A DNA stretch of 64,000 nucleotides. It comes from Dichotomicrobium thermohalophilum. Lineage in GTDB: Bacteria; Pseudomonadota; Alphaproteobacteria; Rhizobiales; Rhodomicrobiaceae. A program made the position numbers and the translations under genes. The DNA is taken from contig NZ_QXDF01000005.1 of assembly GCF_003550175.1 (NCBI RefSeq), positions 1 through 64,000 on the forward strand. The letters are read 5' to 3'. The stretch's first letter is position 1. The number at the start of each line of letters is the position of its first letter. Shown piece by piece: positions 207 to 38,629 of this stretch. The notes under the pieces are model-generated. The model searched no databases. It worked only from the letters and a program-made list of their open reading frames with translations, and was not told the origin of the DNA.

Positions 207-1362
207 TCACCAAAGGCCGCTCCCAAGCGCGGTTCGTGAGATATCGCCACGCGTCCATTACCGGCAGGCCAGCGGCCTCGCAGTCGCGCTGATAGGCCGG
301 GATCGCGTCAGTGGCCGCGCGGCGATCGTCCGCGCCCAGCTTCCGCCAAGTCAGGCGAGCTTTCTCTTTGCCTTTGCGCTTCAGTGGGTACGCTGACCAG
401 AACCGATCGAACGACTTGTCGCTCGCGATGCGATCGGCCTCGCGGCGGACAACGCTGAACAGGTCGCGCGGACTCATCCCGCGAAGCGTGGCGATGTCGC
501 ATAGGGACTCAATCCGGCGAAGCAGATTTCCGGGCTTCATCTCGGGCAAAGCCGCCTCAAGGGCCCGCCTCGCCTCTGGATTCGCTCTGAGCCGGTTTTC
601 ATCATTGACCCAGATTCCGGCGTCGTTGTGCTGAGGCGCGTGCGGCGTCCCCAAAGACGCCGCCGCGCCGTCCTCTCGCGCGCGCGCAAAGGTCGGGGGA
701 AGATCTGGGGCAGATCGTGGGTACGCCATGTACCCCCTTTTGGGAACGTCATGTACCCCCTTCTGACACGCAGCGTACCCCCTTCCATCATCCGCATCCC
801 GCGAAGGGGCTACGCCATGTATCCCCTTTTCCGAACGGGGTACGTCATGTACCCCCTTTTCCGCCGTATCGCCCGGCGCAATGGCATCATCGCCGATGCT
901 CGTGTCGGGGTCGCCTTCAGCGTCCTGCGCAGACTTGGGTTCGTTTTGACCCCAAGTGGATTGCGTGGCCTCGTGAGTGTCGCCATCCTTTGCCATCGCG
1001 CGCTGGAGCTCCTCGATCGTCTGGTCAGGGATGAAATCGTAGGTGATCTTGCGGCCGCGCCCGTCGCCTTCTCGCCTGGCAGAAAAAACCTTGGCCTTTT
1101 CAAGATTGCGCAGCTCGGCCTTGACGCGGTTGCGGCCGGTCCGGCGGATCGCGGCGATGGTCTGCTGTGATGGTCGCGCGCCGGCGGCTGTGCCGCTATC
1201 TGCATGGCCGAGAACGATCATCGCGGTGACCTTCTCGGCATTCGTCAGATCGCTTAGCAGGATCGACCAGAAGGCCCGGAACCAGGGCGATTTCTTACTG
1301 CCTCGTTTGCGCAGGACGCGCGCCCGGATCTCCGCAGGTGATTTTTCAGGTGAGAAATCCAT
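199..1362 (-). CDS. phage-like replication protein with N-terminal helix-turn-helix domain
   Basis: This 387-aa protein resembles the phage/plasmid replication-initiator type. Residues ~35-110 form a helix-turn-helix module in the style of HTH_36 (AEKVTAMIVLGHAD..., then a recognition-helix-like QQTIAAIRR). Residues ~315-385 (FDRFWSAYPLKRKGKEKAR...) resemble the C-terminal segment common to phage replication proteins of the O/DnaT style. The middle, residues ~167-215, is a linker holding KGVHDVP and RGYMAYP peptide repeats. These are encoded by one near-identical DNA repeat read in two frames, pointing to iterons inside the gene, as in lambda O. Start ATG at 1362 follows an AGGCGG stretch. 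It lies downstream of the AlpA-type regulator, as expected for an integrative element. The function is inferred from domain style; no homology search was run. Confidence 0.65.
   Translation of the reverse strand: MDFSPEKSPAEIRARVLRKRGSKKSPWFRAFWSILLSDLTNAEKVTAMIVLGHADSGTAAGARPSQQTIAAIRRTGRNRVKAELRNLEKAKVFSARREGDGRGRKITYDFIPDQTIEELQRAMAKDGDTHEATQSTWGQNEPKSAQDAEGDPDTSIGDDAIAPGDTAEKGVHDVPRSEKGIHGVAPSRDADDGRGYAACQKGVHDVPKRGYMAYPRSAPDLPPTFARAREDGAAASLGTPHAPQHNDAGIWVNDENRLRANPEARRALEAALPEMKPGNLLRRIESLCDIATLRGMSPRDLFSVVRREADRIASDKSFDRFWSAYPLKRKGKEKARLTWRKLGADDRRAATDAIPAYQRDCEAAGLPVMDAWRYLTNRAWERPLVNV
719..860. repeat. five copies of a ~20-bp partly palindromic repeat (candidate iterons)
   Basis: Copies are visible at 719-741, 742-762, 767-785 (degenerate), 806-830 and 837-860. 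The plus-strand consensus is GGGTACGYCATGTACCCCC followed by TTTT or TTC. The core GGGTAC...GTACCC is an inverted repeat. All copies lie inside the replication-protein gene. Copies at 719 and 767 are read in one frame (RGYxAxx peptides); those at 742, 806 and 837 in another (KGVHDVP-like). Nucleotide identity is kept while the peptide changes, which argues that the DNA itself is the binding site or origin. Confidence 0.7.
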
Positions 1363-31322: not shown

Positions 31323-31589
31323 CGGCCTCTGGCCCGGCACGGGGGCGCATCCACAGGCCCTGCTGCGGGATAAAGCGCGGCGATCTTCCTCGGCGGCTGC
31401 GCAACCCCGTCAGGACTGAACAGGTCGCGGCCGAGCGGGACACACGGGCAAAACGAATTTCCTCGTGTATAAGTTGTTAAACGCTGCGCATGGCCACGTT
31501 GACTCTGCAGGCGCGCTGGGGGGAAGCTGGATCAAGCGCAAACGGGGTGTGCTTTCACTTGCTTGCGCGCAACGGGACGGGAGGGATTC

Positions 31590-32777
31590 GTGGGAAGCAG
31601 TCAGACGGATGGGGGCTACGGGCTGAATGTCACACCGACGGGCTTGGCCGAGCAGCGCCTTCTCTTGGGCGATCAGATCGACCAGGCGATCGCGCGCGTT
31701 CTGGCGCATGGGCAGTTTATCCTTGGCCCGGAGGTGACCCAGCTTGAGCAGCGGTTGGCCGATTTCTGTGGCGCGCGCCATTGCGTCACTTGCGCCAGCG
31801 GCACGGACGCGCTCCAGCTCCTGCTGATGGCAGAAGGCGTCGGTCCGGGCGATGCCGTATTCGTGCCCGCCTTTTCCTTCGTGGCGACCGCCGAGATCGT
31901 GCCGCTCGTCGGCGCCGTACCGATTTTCGTGGATGTCAGCGCGGACAGCTTCAACATGGACCCGTCGAGCCTCGAGGCGGCGATTGGTCTGGCGACGCGC
32001 CTCGGACTACGGCCGCGCTGCGTGATCGCTGTCGATCTGTTCGGACAGCCCGCAGACTATGACGCCATAGACGCCGTGGCCGCACCCCACGGCCTGACCG
32101 TGATCGCCGACGCCGCTCAGAGCTTCGGCGCCAGCCGCCACGGCCGCGCGGTCGGCACACTCGGCCATCACACGGCCACAAGTTTCTACCCGACCAAACC
32201 GCTGAGCTGCTACGGCGACGGCGGCGCGATCTTCACGGACGATGATCACGTCGCTGATCTGCTGCGTTCGTTGCGGGTCCACGGGCAGGGACGATCCAAG
32301 AACGACAATATCCGGGTCGGGTTGAACAGTCGGCTCGATACCATCCAGGCGGCAATCCTGCTGGCGAAACTCGACCTGTTCCCCCAGGAAATCCTGGAAC
32401 GGCAGGCCAGGGCCCGCCGCTATAGCGAAGGACTTGGCGATATCCTGCGGGTGCCCGAGGTGCAAGAGGGCGCGAGCTCCGTTTGGGCACAATATACACT
32501 GGTGCTGCAGGACCGGGACGAGCTGGCGGCGCTGTGCCGGCAGGCGGGCATACCCGCAGCCGTTTACTACCCCGTGCCGCTCCATGCCCAGCCAGGCTAT
32601 CGGCGCTTCCCCGCCACGCCCACCGGCCTCACGAATGCGGAGTGGCTTGCCAAACACGTCATCAGCCTGCCGATCCATCCCTATCTCGATGCTGAGACGC
32701 AGGACGCGATCATGCAGACTGTTCGCAGGGGGCTCCAAGCCGTCGGGAAACTCTCTCTGGATGCACAGTATGCCTGA
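31590..32777 (+). CDS. DegT/DnrJ/EryC1/StrS-family PLP aminotransferase
   Basis: A 395-aa sugar aminotransferase. The conserved blocks are GQFILGPEVTQLEQRLADFCG, then CASGTDALQLLL, DEVFVPAFSFVAT-like VFVPAFSFVATAE and VIADAAQSFGA. The PLP lysine is K203 in SFYPTKPLSCYGDGG. The C-terminal RVHGQG and YYPVPLHAQPGYR are typical of WbpE/WlbC-like enzymes making 3-amino sugars. GTG 31590 is chosen because GGGAGGG lies four bases before it. The oxidoreductase that could make its keto substrate starts about at its stop. It probably makes an amino sugar nucleotide for a surface polysaccharide. Confidence 0.85.
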   Translation: MGSSQTDGGYGLNVTPTGLAEQRLLLGDQIDQAIARVLAHGQFILGPEVTQLEQRLADFCGARHCVTCASGTDALQLLLMAEGVGPGDAVFVPAFSFVATAEIVPLVGAVPIFVDVSADSFNMDPSSLEAAIGLATRLGLRPRCVIAVDLFGQPADYDAIDAVAAPHGLTVIADAAQSFGASRHGRAVGTLGHHTATSFYPTKPLSCYGDGGAIFTDDDHVADLLRSLRVHGQGRSKNDNIRVGLNSRLDTIQAAILLAKLDLFPQEILERQARARRYSEGLGDILRVPEVQEGASSVWAQYTLVLQDRDELAALCRQAGIPAAVYYPVPLHAQPGYRRFPATPTGLTNAEWLAKHVISLPIHPYLDAETQDAIMQTVRRGLQAVGKLSLDAQYA

Positions 32778-32802
32778 CACCCGGTCTCAGGGACCATCGC
32801 CA

Positions 32803-33774
32803 ATGGCAGATCCTATCCGCGTTGCCGTCGTGGGGGCCGGCTATTTCGGGCGCTTCCATGCGAAGCATTACGCCGCCGCGCCGCGAGCGAAACTCGTAGC
32901 CGTCGTCGATACCGACGAAGCGCGCGCCCGAACGGTGGCGGCAGAAGCGGGCTGCGAGTATTTCTGCGACTATCACAGTCTCGTCGGGCGCGTGGACGCG
33001 GTCAGTGTCGCGGCGCCCACGCCGGCGCACTTCCAGATCGCGAGGGACCTGATGGCGGCCGGCCTCCACGTTTTCGTCGAAAAGCCGCTGACCGATAGCG
33101 TGGAGAGCGCCAGTACGCTGGCTGAACTCGCCGAGTCGCAGGGTCGGGTGCTGCAGGTCGGTCACGTTGAGCGCTACTCAGCGGCTTTCCGCGCCCTGGC
33201 GAAACGCGTCACGCGCCCGCTGTACATAGAAAGTTACCGTATCGCGCCCTGGCGGGAGCGCGGGGTCGAGGTGGACGTGATCCTCGACCTCATGATCCAC
33301 GACATCGACATCGTCATGGGGCTTGTCGGCTCGCCCGTCACGCAGGTGGAAGCTGTCGGGACGCCCGTTCTGAGCGGGACGACCGATCTGGCGAACGCGC
33401 GGCTCGTTTTCGAGTCCGGGTGCGTCGCCAACATCACAGCGAGCCGGGTGAGCTACAAGACGGAGCGGCGCGTCCGTGTGTTTCAGCCCAACCAGTACGT
33501 GATCTGCGACATGGCCGAGGGGCGCATATTTCAATATCAGCTTCGCGGCAACCCGGCCGTCGAGGGGCCGGCGGCGATCGCGAGCGACTCCGTCGAGATC
33601 CCGAAAGAAGACAGCCTGGCCAACGAGATCAGCGAATTCCTCGACTGCGTCGCCACGGGGCGCCGGCCGACGGTGGATGGCCGCGCCGGATGCGAGGCGG
33701 TGCGCGTGGCGGGCATGATCAACGCGAGCATCGGTGCGCATCACGAGGCCGCGCTGGCGCTATCAGAGGTTTGA
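32803..33774 (+). CDS. Gfo/Idh/MocA-family oxidoreductase
   Basis: A 323-aa NAD(P)-dependent dehydrogenase. Rossmann motif VAVVGAGYFGRFHAKHY is near residue 8, followed by the family EKP motif in LHVFVEKPLTDS. The catalytic-type VDVILDLMIHDIDIVMGL contains the conserved D/H pair. ATG 32803 has AGGGA nine bases before it. An in-frame ATG at 32770 overlapping the aminotransferase stop is the alternative and would couple the two. Together they resemble a WlbA/WlbC-like pair for 3-amino uronate sugars, but no acetyltransferase or epimerase partner is present. Confidence 0.82.
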   Translation: MADPIRVAVVGAGYFGRFHAKHYAAAPRAKLVAVVDTDEARARTVAAEAGCEYFCDYHSLVGRVDAVSVAAPTPAHFQIARDLMAAGLHVFVEKPLTDSVESASTLAELAESQGRVLQVGHVERYSAAFRALAKRVTRPLYIESYRIAPWRERGVEVDVILDLMIHDIDIVMGLVGSPVTQVEAVGTPVLSGTTDLANARLVFESGCVANITASRVSYKTERRVRVFQPNQYVICDMAEGRIFQYQLRGNPAVEGPAAIASDSVEIPKEDSLANEISEFLDCVATGRRPTVDGRAGCEAVRVAGMINASIGAHHEAALALSEV

Positions 33775-33872
33775 TCGGCCGGCGTCCGGGTTTGGGACTG
33801 ATCCTGCGTCTGCGCCCCGAGAAATCGAAGGCCAGCAGATGAAGCGCACAATCTTGGAAGGGCGTTGGTGGC

Positions 33873-33913
33873 AAAAACAAACCCGGGGACCATCCGCCTG
33901 ATGAACCCCGGGT
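33873..33913 (-). terminator. rho-independent terminator of the small membrane-peptide gene
   Basis: On the minus strand ACCCGGGG (33913-33906) pairs with CCCCGGGT (33888-33881) and is followed by TTGTTTTT. It is the most canonical intrinsic terminator in the window. It lies 35 bp past the stop codon of the small gene and could also stop convergent transcripts. Confidence 0.85.
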
Positions 33914-33948
33914 CCGGACTTGGTAACGGCGGCATTTGCGGGGTCAAT

Positions 33949-34047
33949 CTAGAGACCCAGAACGACCAGAAAAGTAAGGGCCACGACGAAAGCCATACCC
34001 ACCTGATTGAAAGCCGGCTGTTCGGCCCACCATCCAACGAACTTCAT
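33949..34047 (-). CDS. 32-residue single-helix membrane peptide
   Basis: A short ORF below usual annotation limits. It begins MKFVGWWAEQPAFNQVG and ends in a 15-residue hydrophobic helix, AFVVALTFLVVLGL, then TAG. GAGGAG stands eight bases before ATG 34047, and a canonical intrinsic terminator follows the stop. The predicted layout is an amphipathic Trp-rich N-terminus, then one membrane helix. An in-frame ATG at 34065 has no ribosome site. I do not recognise a family; subunits of respiratory or light-harvesting complexes and efflux-pump regulators have similar size, but none matches by motif. It is monocistronic and convergent with the oxidoreductase gene. Confidence 0.6.
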   Translation of the reverse strand: MKFVGWWAEQPAFNQVGMAFVVALTFLVVLGL

Positions 34048-34628
34048 TTCCCAGCTCCTCTTCATGGAAATTGACAGGACCATCCTGTCCCGACCTTCGT
34101 GGATATGGTTCGACCGACAAGCAAGCGGAATGGCTGCATATCTCTTATGCGGTAACAGCGACGATCACGCTGGAGCTGGACGCAGGTGGAAAAGAGACGC
34201 ACCTCGCAGCGGCCTTTATAGCCGGAGGCTTTGATCCCACGCGCTTTTTCTGTTGGGCGAACGGACTTTGCCCGAACCGCTGCGGTCAGCCGTTCGGAGC
34301 GCAGCGCGGGGCGCCTTCATGCCACACCACGGTGCAACGCGTTAAAGCGCGCTGAGCGGCCGGCAAGCTGACGGCGCAACCCCACGGACCGCTCTATTCA
34401 GGGCACCCCGTCCGCCCTCGCCAAGGGACAGAACTGGACATGGCGATCCGCAGGCATCGGCCGCCCGCCAAAGCGTTGCCGAACGCGCCCTGCCCGATCG
34501 GCCGATCCGTATCGCCGGATCGGCCCCCGGTACAGTTCATGGACTGGAGATTGCCCCCAACCACTGCGAAGCTGGCAATTCCGTCCCGAGAGACGGCCGC
34601 CAAAAAAGCAAATAAGGGAGGACGGACT
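34048..34628. other. gene-free region upstream of the small peptide and secreted-protein genes
   Basis: The 581 bp separate the two divergent genes. It should hold both promoters. Open frames crossing it (for example plus 34440 onward) lack ribosome sites. No repeat or RNA gene was recognised. Confidence 0.4.
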
Positions 34629-35177
34629 ATGAGAAGAATCGCGACCGCCAGCATCGCCCTGGCGCTGACCGCGACGGCAGCCAGCGCGCAATCCGACGAG
34701 GCGAAGATCAAGGAAGCACTGAGCGCTGCCCCGCCCCAACTCCGCGACGAGGTCACGGTGCGCGATCTTGACGGAACGCTCCTGCGTCAAGGCGAGAGCA
34801 ACTATGTCTGTATGCCCGGCCCGCAGGGCTTCGCCGGGCCGATGTGCCTGGATGAACCGTGGAGACAATGGTTCGAGGCCTACCAGAACCAGAAGGACTT
34901 CACCCCGGAGCGGATCGGCATTTCATACATGCTCGCCGGGGACGCACCCGGCGGCGGCGCGAGCAACAGTGCACCCTATGACAAGAAACCGACGCCGAAT
35001 AACGACTGGGTCGTTGAGGGGCCACACGTGATGATCATCGTGCCTGACGACTCGATCCTTGAGGGCCTGCCCGTCACGCCGGACACGAACGGTCCCTATG
35101 TCATGTGGCCGGGCACGCCCTATGCTCACATAATGCTGCCCGTGGACCAGCGCCCCGAGCAGCGTCCGGTCAAGTAA
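34629..35177 (+). CDS. secreted protein of unknown function
   Basis: A 182-aa exported protein. The signal peptide is clear: MRRIATASIALALTATAASAQ. The mature region contains VRDLDGTLLRQGESNYVCMPG, a PMCLDEPW segment, so two Cys that could pair, then ISYMLAGDAPGGGASN and VEGPHVMIIVPDDSILEGLP. The C-terminus has YVMWPGTPYAHIMLPV. ATG 34629 follows GGAGG by seven bases; upstream in-frame ATGs do not. No known domain was recognised. It is monocistronic. Confidence 0.75.
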   Translation: MRRIATASIALALTATAASAQSDEAKIKEALSAAPPQLRDEVTVRDLDGTLLRQGESNYVCMPGPQGFAGPMCLDEPWRQWFEAYQNQKDFTPERIGISYMLAGDAPGGGASNSAPYDKKPTPNNDWVVEGPHVMIIVPDDSILEGLPVTPDTNGPYVMWPGTPYAHIMLPVDQRPEQRPVK

Positions 35178-35485
35178 ATCGACCGAGCAGAGAGCCGCGA
35201 GCCGGGTGTTTCATGGAAATTCCCGGCTCCGGCTTTGCGGGGATCGTGCGTGCCGCGCCAGGGAACCGCATCGCTCCCTGCTGCGCGCGGCGCCCGCGAC
35301 CCCTCTTCAAGAACGGATCTGCGCGGCACCCGGAATTTTGGACGGAGGTGATGGACCGGCAGGCTCGCAATACCCGCATCGTTGCACGACCTCCGTCATT
35401 CGCTGACATCCCGCGCAGTCTTGCGCTCAGGTGAACGCCCGCAGAAGCAGCCCGTACAACCCAAGGTGGCCAGACGCCGGCCAGC
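35178..35485. other. gene-free gap between convergent secreted-protein and RND genes, with a hairpin
   Basis: GAGCCGGG (35199-35206) and CCCGGCTC (35222-35229) form a perfect 8-bp stem over a 15-nt loop, 22 bp past the upstream stop. It is a possible terminator. The remaining ~250 bp show no gene or repeat. Confidence 0.45.
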
Positions 35486-38400
35486 CTAAGCCGGCTGCCG
35501 CGCGTCCGCGCCGACACGCCCGCGGCGAAGCCGAACGCTCACACGCTCGCCCGCGACCAGAAGCGTCGGCGTCAGGATCAGCGTCAGGATGGTCGCGAAG
35601 ACGAGCCCCCCGGCAATGGCGGCTGAGAGTTGCGTCCACCACTGTGTCGACGGCGCACCAAAGGCGATCTCGCGGCCGATCATGTCAACGTTCATCGCCA
35701 GCACCATCGGCATCAGCCCCAGCACCGTCGTGATGACCGTGAGCACCACCGGCCGCAGACGCTGAGCGCCAGTACGCAGCGCAGCTTCCAGCGGGTCGAG
35801 CCGGGCCCGGCGCCGCAGATCGTTGTAGGTGTCGATCAGCACGATATTGTTGTTCACGACGATGCCGGCCAGCGCGATCACGCCGATCCCCGCCATCACG
35901 ACGCCGAAGGGCTCGCCCCGGATCAGCAGCCCGAGCAACACGCCGGCCGTGGACAGCACGATCGCGCTCATGACGAGAAGCGCCTGGAAGATGCTGTTGA
36001 ACTGGGTGACGAGCAGGATCAGCATCAGACCGACCGCGGCGATAAACGCCTTGACCAGAAAGTCCATCGTCTCGGCGATGTCCTCGTTCTCGCCTTTGAA
36101 GGTCGCCTCGGTGCCGCGCGGCAGGGAAACCTCCGCCAGCGCCGCCTGCAGCTTCTGCACCTGGGTGTCAACGAGCAGTCCTTCCGCCACATCGGCTTCG
36201 ACGGTCATCACGCGCTCGGCATCGACCCGGTCGATCGTTCCGGTTTTCGGCGCGGGCTCGAAGCGCACGAAATTGCCGATCGGGACCTGCCCGTTTGCCG
36301 TCGGGACCGTGAGCTGGTCGAGCTGTTCGAGGCTGCGCGCGCCGAAGGGGAAGCGCACGCGGATGTCAACCTCTTCATCAGTGTCGTCCGGCTGGTACTC
36401 GGCGACCTTCACGCCGTTGGTCACCATTTGCACGGCATAGCCCAGCAGCGAGATGTCCGCGCCGTAGCGCGCGGCCTCGGCCCGGTCGACCTCCAGCCGC
36501 CATTCCACCCCCGGCAACGGCCGGGAGTCGGTCACGTCCACGAAACCGCCGACCTCGCGCATGGCCTCACGCACGTGCGCCACCGCCTCCGGTAACTGCT
36601 CCGGCGCTTGCGTCGTCAACTCGATCTGCACCGGCTTGCCCTGCGATGGACCGCCCTGCTCCTCGCGGACCTGGATCTTCACGCCAGCGATGTCAGAAAG
36701 CTGCTCGCGCACCGCGGCAAGCACCTCCGCCGCTGGCGGCCGCGTGTCCCATTCGGTCAGTTCGAGCTGAATGACCCCAATCACGTCCTCGGCCATGTTG
36801 CGCCGGGACTGGCCACCGCCGATCGTCCGCGCATAGACGTTTTCAAAGACCGGGTTTCCGAGCAACCGCTCCTCGACCCGGCGCACGATATCGTCGCGCT
36901 CATGAATCGACAGGTTGCCGCGCGCCTGGATCTGAACCTGCGCGAAGTCAGGTTCCACATCGGGAAAGAACTCGATGCCCTTGCCCAGCGCGCCATAAAG
37001 CGCGTAGGCCCCGATCACCACCCCGATGACGGCAGCGATTGTGGAGGCGGGCCGCTTCGCCGAGGCACGCAGCACCCCGACATACCAGCCGGTGACGCCG
37101 CCGATCTTGCTCAGATCGCCCCCTTCCGCGGCCGCCATCACCGACGTACTGCTGGAGCGGCCGCCGCCGCGCAGAACCTTACCGATGACGGGGATGAACA
37201 CGAGCGCCATCGCCAGCGAGGCAACCAGCGTCACGATCACCGTGATCGGCAGGTATTGCATGAACTCGCCGACGACGCCGGGCCAGAACAGCAGCGGAAA
37301 GAACACCGCCACCGTGGTCGCGATGCCAGCGGTGATGGGCCAGAACATCCGCTTGGCCGCCCCGGCGAATGCGGCGGCCCGAGGCTCGCCCTCGTCCATC
37401 TTCCGGTCCGCCAGCTCGACAACGACGATCGCGCCGTCAACGAGCATCCCGACAACCATGATGAGGCTGAAAAGCACCACGATGTTGAGCGTGAAGCCCA
37501 TCGCGTCGAGGACAAGGATGCCGGCCAGGAACGCGCCGGGGATGGCGAGGCCGACGAGCAGGGCGGAGCGCAGCCCCAGCGCGGCGATCACGACGATCAT
37601 GACGAGGACGATCGCGCTCATGACGTTGTTCTGCAGGTCACCGAGCAGGGTGCGCACATTCTCGGACTTGTCCTGGAGGTAGGCAACCTCGACGCCAGCG
37701 GGCCAGGTCTGGCGCATCTGCTCGATCGCCGCGCGGGATTGCGCGATGGTCTCGATGATGTTCGCGCCGACGCGCTTCTTGATCTCCAGCGCCAGCGCGG
37801 GCTGTCCCCCGACCCGGGCGAAGCCCTCCGGATCCTTGTAGGTGCGGCGCACGACCCCGACATCGCCGACGGTGACAACACGGTCGCCATCGACCTTGAT
37901 CGGCATCTCGCGCACTTCTTCGAAGTTCTCGACGACGCCCGGAACCTTAAGTGCGATGCGGCCCGCACCCGTGTCGATGTTTCCGGCTGCGACGAGCTGG
38001 TTGTTGTTGGAAATGCGCTGCAGCACCTCTTCGTAGGAGAGGCCGTAGGTCTGCATGGTCGTGGGATCGAGCAGGACTTCGACGACGTCCTCACGGCTGC
38101 CGCCGATGTCCACCTCCAGCACGCCCGGCAAAGCCTCCAGCCGATCCTTCACCTCGCGCGACAACTCAACAAGCGTGCGCTCGGGGACGCTGCCGGAAAG
38201 CACCGCTGTCAGCACCGGGAATAGCGCGACGTTGACCTCCTGGACGCGCGGCTCTTCGGCGTCGGCGGGCAGTTCGGATTTCGCGATATCAACTTTCTCG
38301 CGCACGTCCTGGAGGGCGCGGTCGCTGTCGAAGCCGGCCTCGAATTCCAGCGTGATCGTCGCATAGTTCTCCGTCGCGGAAGCCCGCATCTCGTCCAGCC

Positions 38401-38629
38401 CCTCGATGGACTGGAGTTCCTTCTCCAGCGGGCGGACGAGCAGCCGCTCGGAATCCTCCGGCGAAATACCGTCCTGGTAGACCGAGATGTACATCGTCGG
38501 GATGGTGACGTCCGGCTCGGCCTCCTTCGGGATCGAGACATAAGCCATCGCGCCGGTCACCATCAGGGCCAGAAAGATGAGAATGACAGTGCGGGAGCGG
38601 TCGAATGCCGCGTCGAGAAATCTGCTCAT
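35486..38629 (-). CDS. RND efflux pump inner-membrane permease
   Basis: A 1047-aa AcrB-type transporter. It opens MSRFLDAAFDRSRTVILIFL and has the expected two periplasmic porter regions (~35-330 and ~565-870) and twelve helices. Two proton-relay sites deviate from AcrB. TM4 reads MLVDGAIVVVELADR, so the second Asp of the AcrB DD pair is Gly. TM10 reads GIVVNNNIVLID, with Asn where AcrB has Lys940. Such changes occur in some alphaproteobacterial HAE-type pumps. It is the last gene of a unit with the fusion protein (10-bp gap). The substrate range is unknown. Confidence 0.88.
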   Translation of the reverse strand: MSRFLDAAFDRSRTVILIFLALMVTGAMAYVSIPKEAEPDVTIPTMYISVYQDGISPEDSERLLVRPLEKELQSIEGLDEMRASATENYATITLEFEAGFDSDRALQDVREKVDIAKSELPADAEEPRVQEVNVALFPVLTAVLSGSVPERTLVELSREVKDRLEALPGVLEVDIGGSREDVVEVLLDPTTMQTYGLSYEEVLQRISNNNQLVAAGNIDTGAGRIALKVPGVVENFEEVREMPIKVDGDRVVTVGDVGVVRRTYKDPEGFARVGGQPALALEIKKRVGANIIETIAQSRAAIEQMRQTWPAGVEVAYLQDKSENVRTLLGDLQNNVMSAIVLVMIVVIAALGLRSALLVGLAIPGAFLAGILVLDAMGFTLNIVVLFSLIMVVGMLVDGAIVVVELADRKMDEGEPRAAAFAGAAKRMFWPITAGIATTVAVFFPLLFWPGVVGEFMQYLPITVIVTLVASLAMALVFIPVIGKVLRGGGRSSSTSVMAAAEGGDLSKIGGVTGWYVGVLRASAKRPASTIAAVIGVVIGAYALYGALGKGIEFFPDVEPDFAQVQIQARGNLSIHERDDIVRRVEERLLGNPVFENVYARTIGGGQSRRNMAEDVIGVIQLELTEWDTRPPAAEVLAAVREQLSDIAGVKIQVREEQGGPSQGKPVQIELTTQAPEQLPEAVAHVREAMREVGGFVDVTDSRPLPGVEWRLEVDRAEAARYGADISLLGYAVQMVTNGVKVAEYQPDDTDEEVDIRVRFPFGARSLEQLDQLTVPTANGQVPIGNFVRFEPAPKTGTIDRVDAERVMTVEADVAEGLLVDTQVQKLQAALAEVSLPRGTEATFKGENEDIAETMDFLVKAFIAAVGLMLILLVTQFNSIFQALLVMSAIVLSTAGVLLGLLIRGEPFGVVMAGIGVIALAGIVVNNNIVLIDTYNDLRRRARLDPLEAALRTGAQRLRPVVLTVITTVLGLMPMVLAMNVDMIGREIAFGAPSTQWWTQLSAAIAGGLVFATILTLILTPTLLVAGERVSVRLRRGRVGADARQPA

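What the first reader, a model, noticed from the sequence alone, without database searches (positions are those of the whole stretch)
33873..34047. Unlisted 32-residue membrane-peptide gene with its own SD and terminator
The ORF has a GAGGAG ribosome site eight bases before ATG, a Trp-rich amphipathic start, one membrane helix, and a canonical intrinsic terminator (ACCCGGGG/CCCCGGGT plus TTGTTTTT) 35 bp after the stop. Gene-calling usually misses this size. The combination of three independent signals makes a real small protein likely, with no family I recognise.
Basis: seen in the sequence. Interest (0 to 1): 0.6.

Follow-up and report, generated by a model that had tools for sequence, protein, structure and literature searches.

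The report
Unannotated 32-residue membrane microprotein family
A tiny, unannotated gene encoding a 32-residue membrane peptide appears to be real: distant bacteria carry recognisable relatives of the same size, each standing alone between other genes, so it is a new, sparsely distributed microprotein family whose job is still to be found.

Summary
The ORF is real. On the minus strand at 34047..33949 it encodes MKFVGWWAEQPAFNQVGMAFVVALTFLVVLGL, with GAGGAG 7 nt before ATG and a strong one-directional terminator 35 nt after the stop. Small ORFs with Shine-Dalgarno site, membrane helix and terminator are about tenfold above chance here (2 against 0.15). It is missing from the seven held family genomes. 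A class search found a 35-aa relative (G474: MNFWQWWSEQSAFNRMGLSVVGAVIVIAIIAVLAG), and a two-row profile a 34-aa one (G053: MNFMRFWSDLSMWNKFGLSMIAAVIIVFVLVSIF). Both begin at an ATG aligned with this one, are intergenic, and lie in the same gene> <peptide gene> arrangement with different neighbours. In-register scores (71, 42, 77) far exceed 234 membrane-like random ORFs (mean about -26, maximum 10). A fourth genome carries a similar module at the C-terminus of a 128-aa protein. No Pfam, NCBIfam or PDB entry matches the peptide; the one PHROG match is weak (E 0.079). Best reading: a free-standing N-in single-pass membrane microprotein that binds and modulates a larger membrane protein. The partner is unknown; toxin or YohP-like roles are not excluded. 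New family of a known kind.

The parts
33949..34047 (-). 32-aa ORF MKFVGWWAEQPAFNQVGMAFVVALTFLVVLGL (ATG to TAG): Trp-rich N-terminal segment (residues 1-17), then one membrane helix (about 17-32)
   Evidence: homologues; helix 4-31 in single-sequence AlphaFold2, mean pLDDT 84
34055..34060 (-). Shine-Dalgarno site GAGGAG, 7 nt before the ATG
   Evidence: Sequence
33881..33913 (-). Intrinsic terminator hairpin, 35 nt after the stop codon
   Evidence: -20.8 kcal/mol, z -3.7
33873..33880 (-). U-tract of the terminator, TTGTTTTT
   Evidence: Sequence
34073..34089 (.). Perfect palindrome GACAGGA-N3-TCCTGTC upstream of the gene: possible operator or 5' leader hairpin (speculative)
   Evidence: Only copy at up to one mismatch in this genome; pairs in the predicted leader RNA

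Best explanation
A monocistronic gene for a single-pass inner-membrane microprotein of a previously undescribed family, consensus about M-[NK]-F-x-x-[WF]-W-[SA]-[ED]-[QL]-[PS]-[AM]-[FW]-N-x-x-G-[ML] plus a 14-18 residue hydrophobic helix. Shown by sequence: ORF, SD, terminator, homologues, membrane-helix composition. Inferred: N-terminus in the cytoplasm and C-terminus outside (positive residues lie only before the helix: K2 here, R5, R15 or K15 in relatives). Inferred mechanism: the conserved Trp/acid/Asn/Gly segment sits at the membrane surface and binds a larger membrane protein or complex, as an accessory or regulatory subunit acting in trans, because no neighbour gene is shared between members.
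For: SD + helix + terminator combination well above shuffles. Relatives: G474 (40% identity, E 4.7e-4 per genome) and G053 (E 8.5e-5 per genome with a two-row profile); both begin at an ATG with a purine-rich site upstream and end within a few codons of the match. In-register scores 71, 42 and 77 against 234 membrane-like ORFs of the same length, mean about -26, sd 12, maximum 10; segment-wise permutation p <1e-5, 1.5e-4, <1e-5. The conserved residues are not just hydrophobic: M1, F3, W7, N14, G17 and A23 invariant, position 9 E/D, position 15 Q/R/K. All three lie alone between other genes, facing the gene before and back to back with the gene after. A C-terminal copy of the module in a 128-aa protein of G460, RFWDDLPIWNQYG + helix, fits an N-in tail-anchor topology. 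No unusual RNA structure besides the terminator and leader hairpin (z -0.61).
Against: Only two free-standing relatives in about 780 sampled genomes, none in the seven same-family genomes, so vertical conservation is not shown. No shared neighbour points to a partner. No promoter recognised. Similarity hits chosen by protein score automatically show diverged third codon positions, so that pattern is not independent evidence of selection. No expression data. The partner-binding step is inference only.
Confidence: 0.5

Rival explanations
1. A membrane-active stress peptide that acts on the lipid bilayer or proton-motive force rather than on one partner, in the way reported for the 27-aa YohP of E. 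coli.
For: Same size class and single helix; short isolated gene with possible dedicated control (palindrome at 34073-34089). YohP production lowers membrane potential and fluidity and induces the stringent response (PMC12719787).
Against: The conserved N-terminal positions (F3, W7, E/D9, N14, G17) suggest a specific contact rather than bulk lipid action.
Confidence: 0.2
2. Toxin of a type I toxin-antitoxin pair: a small hydrophobic peptide controlled by an antisense RNA.
For: Small hydrophobic peptide, sparse distribution, isolated gene with strong terminator, leader hairpin.
Against: Single copy in the genome; no promoter-like site on either strand; no Rfam match in 33000-35500; no match in plasmids or phages for the 44-aa form.
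Confidence: 0.12
3. Not a protein gene: a non-coding small RNA ending at the terminator, or a chance ORF.
For: Terminator is the strongest single signal; chance alone gives 0.15 such triple combinations in the sampled intergenic DNA.
Against: Homologous ORFs of the same length and start in two other genomes; body of the transcript no more structured than shuffles (z -0.61); positive codon score; no Rfam match.
Confidence: 0.05
4. Similarity among the short peptides is convergent: unrelated microproteins settled on the same Trp/acid juxtamembrane pattern plus helix.
For: Sparse distribution, different neighbours in every genome.
Against: In-register scores about 8 sd above membrane-like ORFs for two of the three pairs; identical non-hydrophobic positions N14 and G17 in all three.
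Confidence: 0.1

Closest known systems
Accessory microproteins of larger membrane proteins (CydX, AcrZ, KdpF, MgrB, CcoM; the 36-aa CcoM is mentioned in PMC10433244, the others from general knowledge)
   Same: About 30-50 aa, one membrane helix, no enzymatic domain
   Different: No sequence match: no PDB chain matched the peptide at E up to 10; the three-row profile gave only weak matches to NADH dehydrogenase subunit 3 (best E 0.047); no partner gene is adjacent here
YohP of E. coli (27 aa; PMC12719787)
   Same: Size class and membrane location
Membrane SEPs found by Ribo-seq in Sinorhizobium meliloti (SEP6, SEP16; PMC10117765)
   Same: Unannotated small membrane proteins, probably in the same order
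   Different: Their sequences were not compared directly; no homologue of this peptide was recognised in 397 sampled genomes of the order with the single sequence and one (G053) with the profile in 337
Type I toxins (TisB, Hok, Ldr, Fst types; from general knowledge)
   Same: Small hydrophobic peptides
   Different: No antisense promoter recognised, single copy, no Rfam match

Membership tests
Any Pfam / NCBIfam / PHROG family | Profile match above the curated cut-off | tested here: not met
   No Pfam or NCBIfam match for the peptide; PHROG best E 0.079; of the three members one matches PF04226 at E 0.0015 and none matches NCBIfam
Microprotein subunit of a solved complex (CydX, AcrZ, KdpF, CcoM) | Sequence similarity to a solved chain | tested here: not met
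   No PDB chain at E up to 10 for the peptide; profile best E 0.047 to NDH subunit 3, helix part only
Microprotein subunit of a solved complex (CydX, AcrZ, KdpF, CcoM) | Encoded beside its partner (holds for CydX and KdpF, not for AcrZ) | tested here: not met
   No shared neighbour in G000, G474, G053; the RND pump gene of the window (35486-38629) lies 1.4 kb away with another gene between, and no such pump was recognised by eye among the genes called near the two relatives
Type I toxin-antitoxin | Antisense RNA gene overlapping or near the toxin transcript | tested here: inconclusive
   No sigma-70-like promoter on either strand and no Rfam match; needs RNA data
Type I toxin-antitoxin | Toxicity on overexpression | not testable with these tools
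   Wet experiment
New WW-[ED]-x-x-x-[FW]-N-x-x-G membrane microprotein family (defined here) | ATG-aligned motif, 32-35 aa, helix at the C-terminus, SD-like site upstream | tested here: met
   Three members

The most novel reading that the evidence does not exclude
A scattered, unannotated family in this class of bacteria uses a Trp/acid/Asn/Gly juxtamembrane module plus helix, both as a free 32-35 aa microprotein and as the C-terminal membrane anchor of a larger cytoplasmic protein (G460). The free form would act on the module's common membrane partner.
Probability: 0.25. Interest if true: 0.55.

Novelty: new member of a known kind. Interest (0 to 1): 0.4.

Why it matters
Genes this small are usually missed by gene callers. 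Here a single-genome guess from SD, helix and terminator was backed by distant relatives, giving a motif that can be searched for elsewhere and defined residues (W6, W7, E9, N14, G17) to mutate. The class of single-pass microproteins is well known, so the surprise is moderate.

Tried and rejected
AcrZ-like partner for the nearby RND pump gene (35486-38629): a gene on the other strand lies between, and no pump was recognised near the relatives. Leader peptide or attenuator: no gene follows on the minus strand; the next DNA is the antisense of the oxidoreductase gene. The 44-aa and 38-aa forms from upstream ATGs (34083, 34065): poor SD, so the 32-aa form is preferred. A 32-bp DNA match in G088 covers only the SD and leader, is followed by no similar peptide, and appears to lie inside another coding frame: coincidence. 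Weak hits in 300-800 aa frames, and a recurrent short frame reading ...GMSVVPA.QYIAIMA..., probably antisense to a conserved gene: rejected. L173 (G268; MRFKQWWTKHEAD...) and L179 (G411; MSVFNEVGLSVFGAVTLLAAISFVFG, own SD-like site and hairpin) are similar small membrane ORFs but below significance: left open. Synteny with Methyloceanibacter L018 (68% identical oxidoreductase): the intergenic space is absent there, the next gene (lpxB-like by eye) follows at once. Rfam: nothing. Plasmids, phages and viral contigs: nothing. One genome search was wasted on an irrelevant family. The first genome-contig scan with an exact DNA pattern found nothing, and the peptide was too short for the search for related loci.

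Full report
Observation. The finding is on the minus strand. Searches show ATG at 34047, TAG ending at 33949, 32 codons, MKFVGWWAEQPAFNQVGMAFVVALTFLVVLGL. GAGGAG ends 8 bases upstream of the ATG (7 between). The hairpin ACCCGGGG...CCCCGGGT begins 35 nt after the stop and is followed by TTGTTTTT. The inner part of the hairpin pairs as well; the 40-nt element folds at -20.8 kcal/mol, z -3.7, none of 200 shuffles as stable. No U-tract exists on the plus side, so it ends minus-strand transcription, and the only good candidate gene there is this ORF. The generic scanner missed it, probably because it looks only for loops of 3-8 directly inside a perfect stem.

Chance. A simple codon model trained on 464 kb of the same genome (20 stretches plus the window) called genes and left 62 kb intergenic. 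There, ORFs of 20-70 aa with an SD word of at least 5 bases and a hydrophobic 17-mer number 5 against 0.45 in Markov shuffles; with a terminator-like hairpin 2 against 0.15. The peptide here has the best terminator score (-25.9 in that scan). The codon score of the frame is +9.6 bits; one antisense frame scores +7.1 and the other four are negative. So each signal is moderate but the combination is unusual.

Surroundings. Upstream on the plus strand are a DegT-type aminotransferase (31563-32777) and a Gfo/Idh/MocA oxidoreductase (32803-33774; best NCBIfam match UDP-N-acetylglucosamine 3-dehydrogenase, below its cut-off), which by family look like the GnnB/GnnA pair of 2,3-diamino lipid A synthesis (inference). 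Downstream on the plus strand is a 181-aa protein with a signal-like start (34632-35177), then an RND pump gene on the minus strand (35486-38629). The peptide gene thus lies alone: gene> <peptide gene>. The genome probably belongs to Alphaproteobacteria, Hyphomicrobiales, judging from the closest oxidoreductase (68%, Methyloceanibacter MAG L018; inference).

Relatives. With the single sequence, none of the seven same-family genomes and none of 397 sampled genomes of the order gave a credible match. A class sample of 385 gave one: G474, 40% identity, E 4.7e-4. It is a 35-aa ORF, MNFWQWWSEQSAFNRMGLSVVGAVIVIAIIAVLAG, starting at an ATG with a purine-rich site upstream, between an agmatinase-like gene facing it and a fatty-acid-desaturase-like gene pointing away (these two names are read from the translations, not tested). 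A two-row profile (A1) found a second one in the order, G053, E 8.5e-5: MNFMRFWSDLSMWNKFGLSMIAAVIIVFVLVSIF, 34 aa, with GGAG upstream, between an argC-like gene facing it and a pyridoxamine-oxidase-like gene pointing away (names again by eye). A three-row profile (A2) on 327 class genomes added G460, E 3.2e-5, where the module RFWDDLPIWNQYG plus helix ends a 128-aa protein that has its own SD-like site and no clear Pfam or NCBIfam family.

Are they homologous? Per-genome E-values multiplied by the genomes searched give about 0.2 (G474) and 0.03 (G053), so E-values alone would not suffice. But a chance hit need not start at an ATG, end in a stop at the same distance, or lie in a gap between genes. 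Fixing the register at ATG, I scored all ATG ORFs of 28-40 aa in 1.57 Mb of other held DNA: among 234 membrane-like ones the mean score to the window peptide is -26.5, sd 12.2, maximum 10, whereas G474 scores 71 and G053 42; G474 to G053 is 77. Segment-wise permutations agree. Third codon positions are the least conserved (29-34% against 50-75% for first and second), but hits picked by protein score would show this anyway, so I do not count it as independent. Only two free-standing relatives were found in roughly 780 sampled genomes; the held collection is itself a sample.

Mechanism. AlphaFold2 on the single sequence gives one helix, residues 4-31, mean pLDDT 84. Positive charges lie only at the N-terminal side (K2 here; R15 or R5/K15 in relatives), which by the positive-inside rule places the N-terminus in the cytoplasm (inference). 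The G460 protein has the module after a charged soluble part, which fits the same topology. F3, W7, E/D9, N14 and G17 lie at the membrane surface (inference) and look like a contact for a partner. Because the neighbours differ in each genome, the partner would be encoded elsewhere. A YohP-like effect on the membrane itself (PMC12719787) and a type I toxin are the main rivals. A non-coding RNA is unlikely: outside the terminator the transcript is no more structured than shuffles (z -0.61) and Rfam has no match.

Known or new. No Pfam, NCBIfam or PDB match for the peptide, and only E 0.079 in PHROGs; among the members only one matches PF04226 at 0.0015, and the profile gives weak NDH subunit 3 helix matches in PDB. 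Studies such as the S. meliloti small-proteome paper show that membrane SEPs missing from annotation are found regularly (PMC10117765). So it is a new family within a well-known kind.

Verdict. Observation confirmed, interpretation supported, function inferred. Confidence that it is a real protein gene about 0.9; that the three are homologous about 0.85; that it acts through a protein partner about 0.5.

Noticed in passing
window 34073-34089: Perfect 7+3+7 palindrome GACAGGA-TGG-TCCTGTC about 25 nt upstream of the start codon; the only copy with at most one mismatch in this genome.
   Followed up: partly
window 34399-34750 and G000:C2:326331-326665: Degenerate partial second copy of the region around the start of the 181-aa protein (88% over 110 bp, 75% over 59 bp).
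   Followed up: partly
window 34632-35177: 181-aa protein with a signal-like N-terminus, no Pfam or NCBIfam family and no homologue in 30 sampled relatives.
   Followed up: partly
window 31563-33774: Aminotransferase/oxidoreductase pair resembling GnnB/GnnA (2,3-diamino lipid A); the oxidoreductase has no strong match in the seven same-family genomes, so possibly acquired.
   Followed up: no
L113:15070-15159 (+), L121:8877-9002 (+), L127:14043-14195 (+), L131:19715-19891 (-): Four other SD-preceded small membrane ORFs in intergenic DNA of the same genome, e.g. MAYLIAQLWPFLLLALLVGIAVGWYSVET.
   Followed up: no
L179, + strand, ATG at 1498: 26-aa ORF MSVFNEVGLSVFGAVTLLAAISFVFG in G411 with SD-like site and hairpin just after the stop; possible shortened relative.
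   Followed up: partly
L177, minus-strand frame 835-1308 (minus-strand numbering): 128-aa protein of G460 with a basic, helical-looking N-terminal part and the same Trp/acid/Asn/Gly module as C-terminal anchor.
   Followed up: partly
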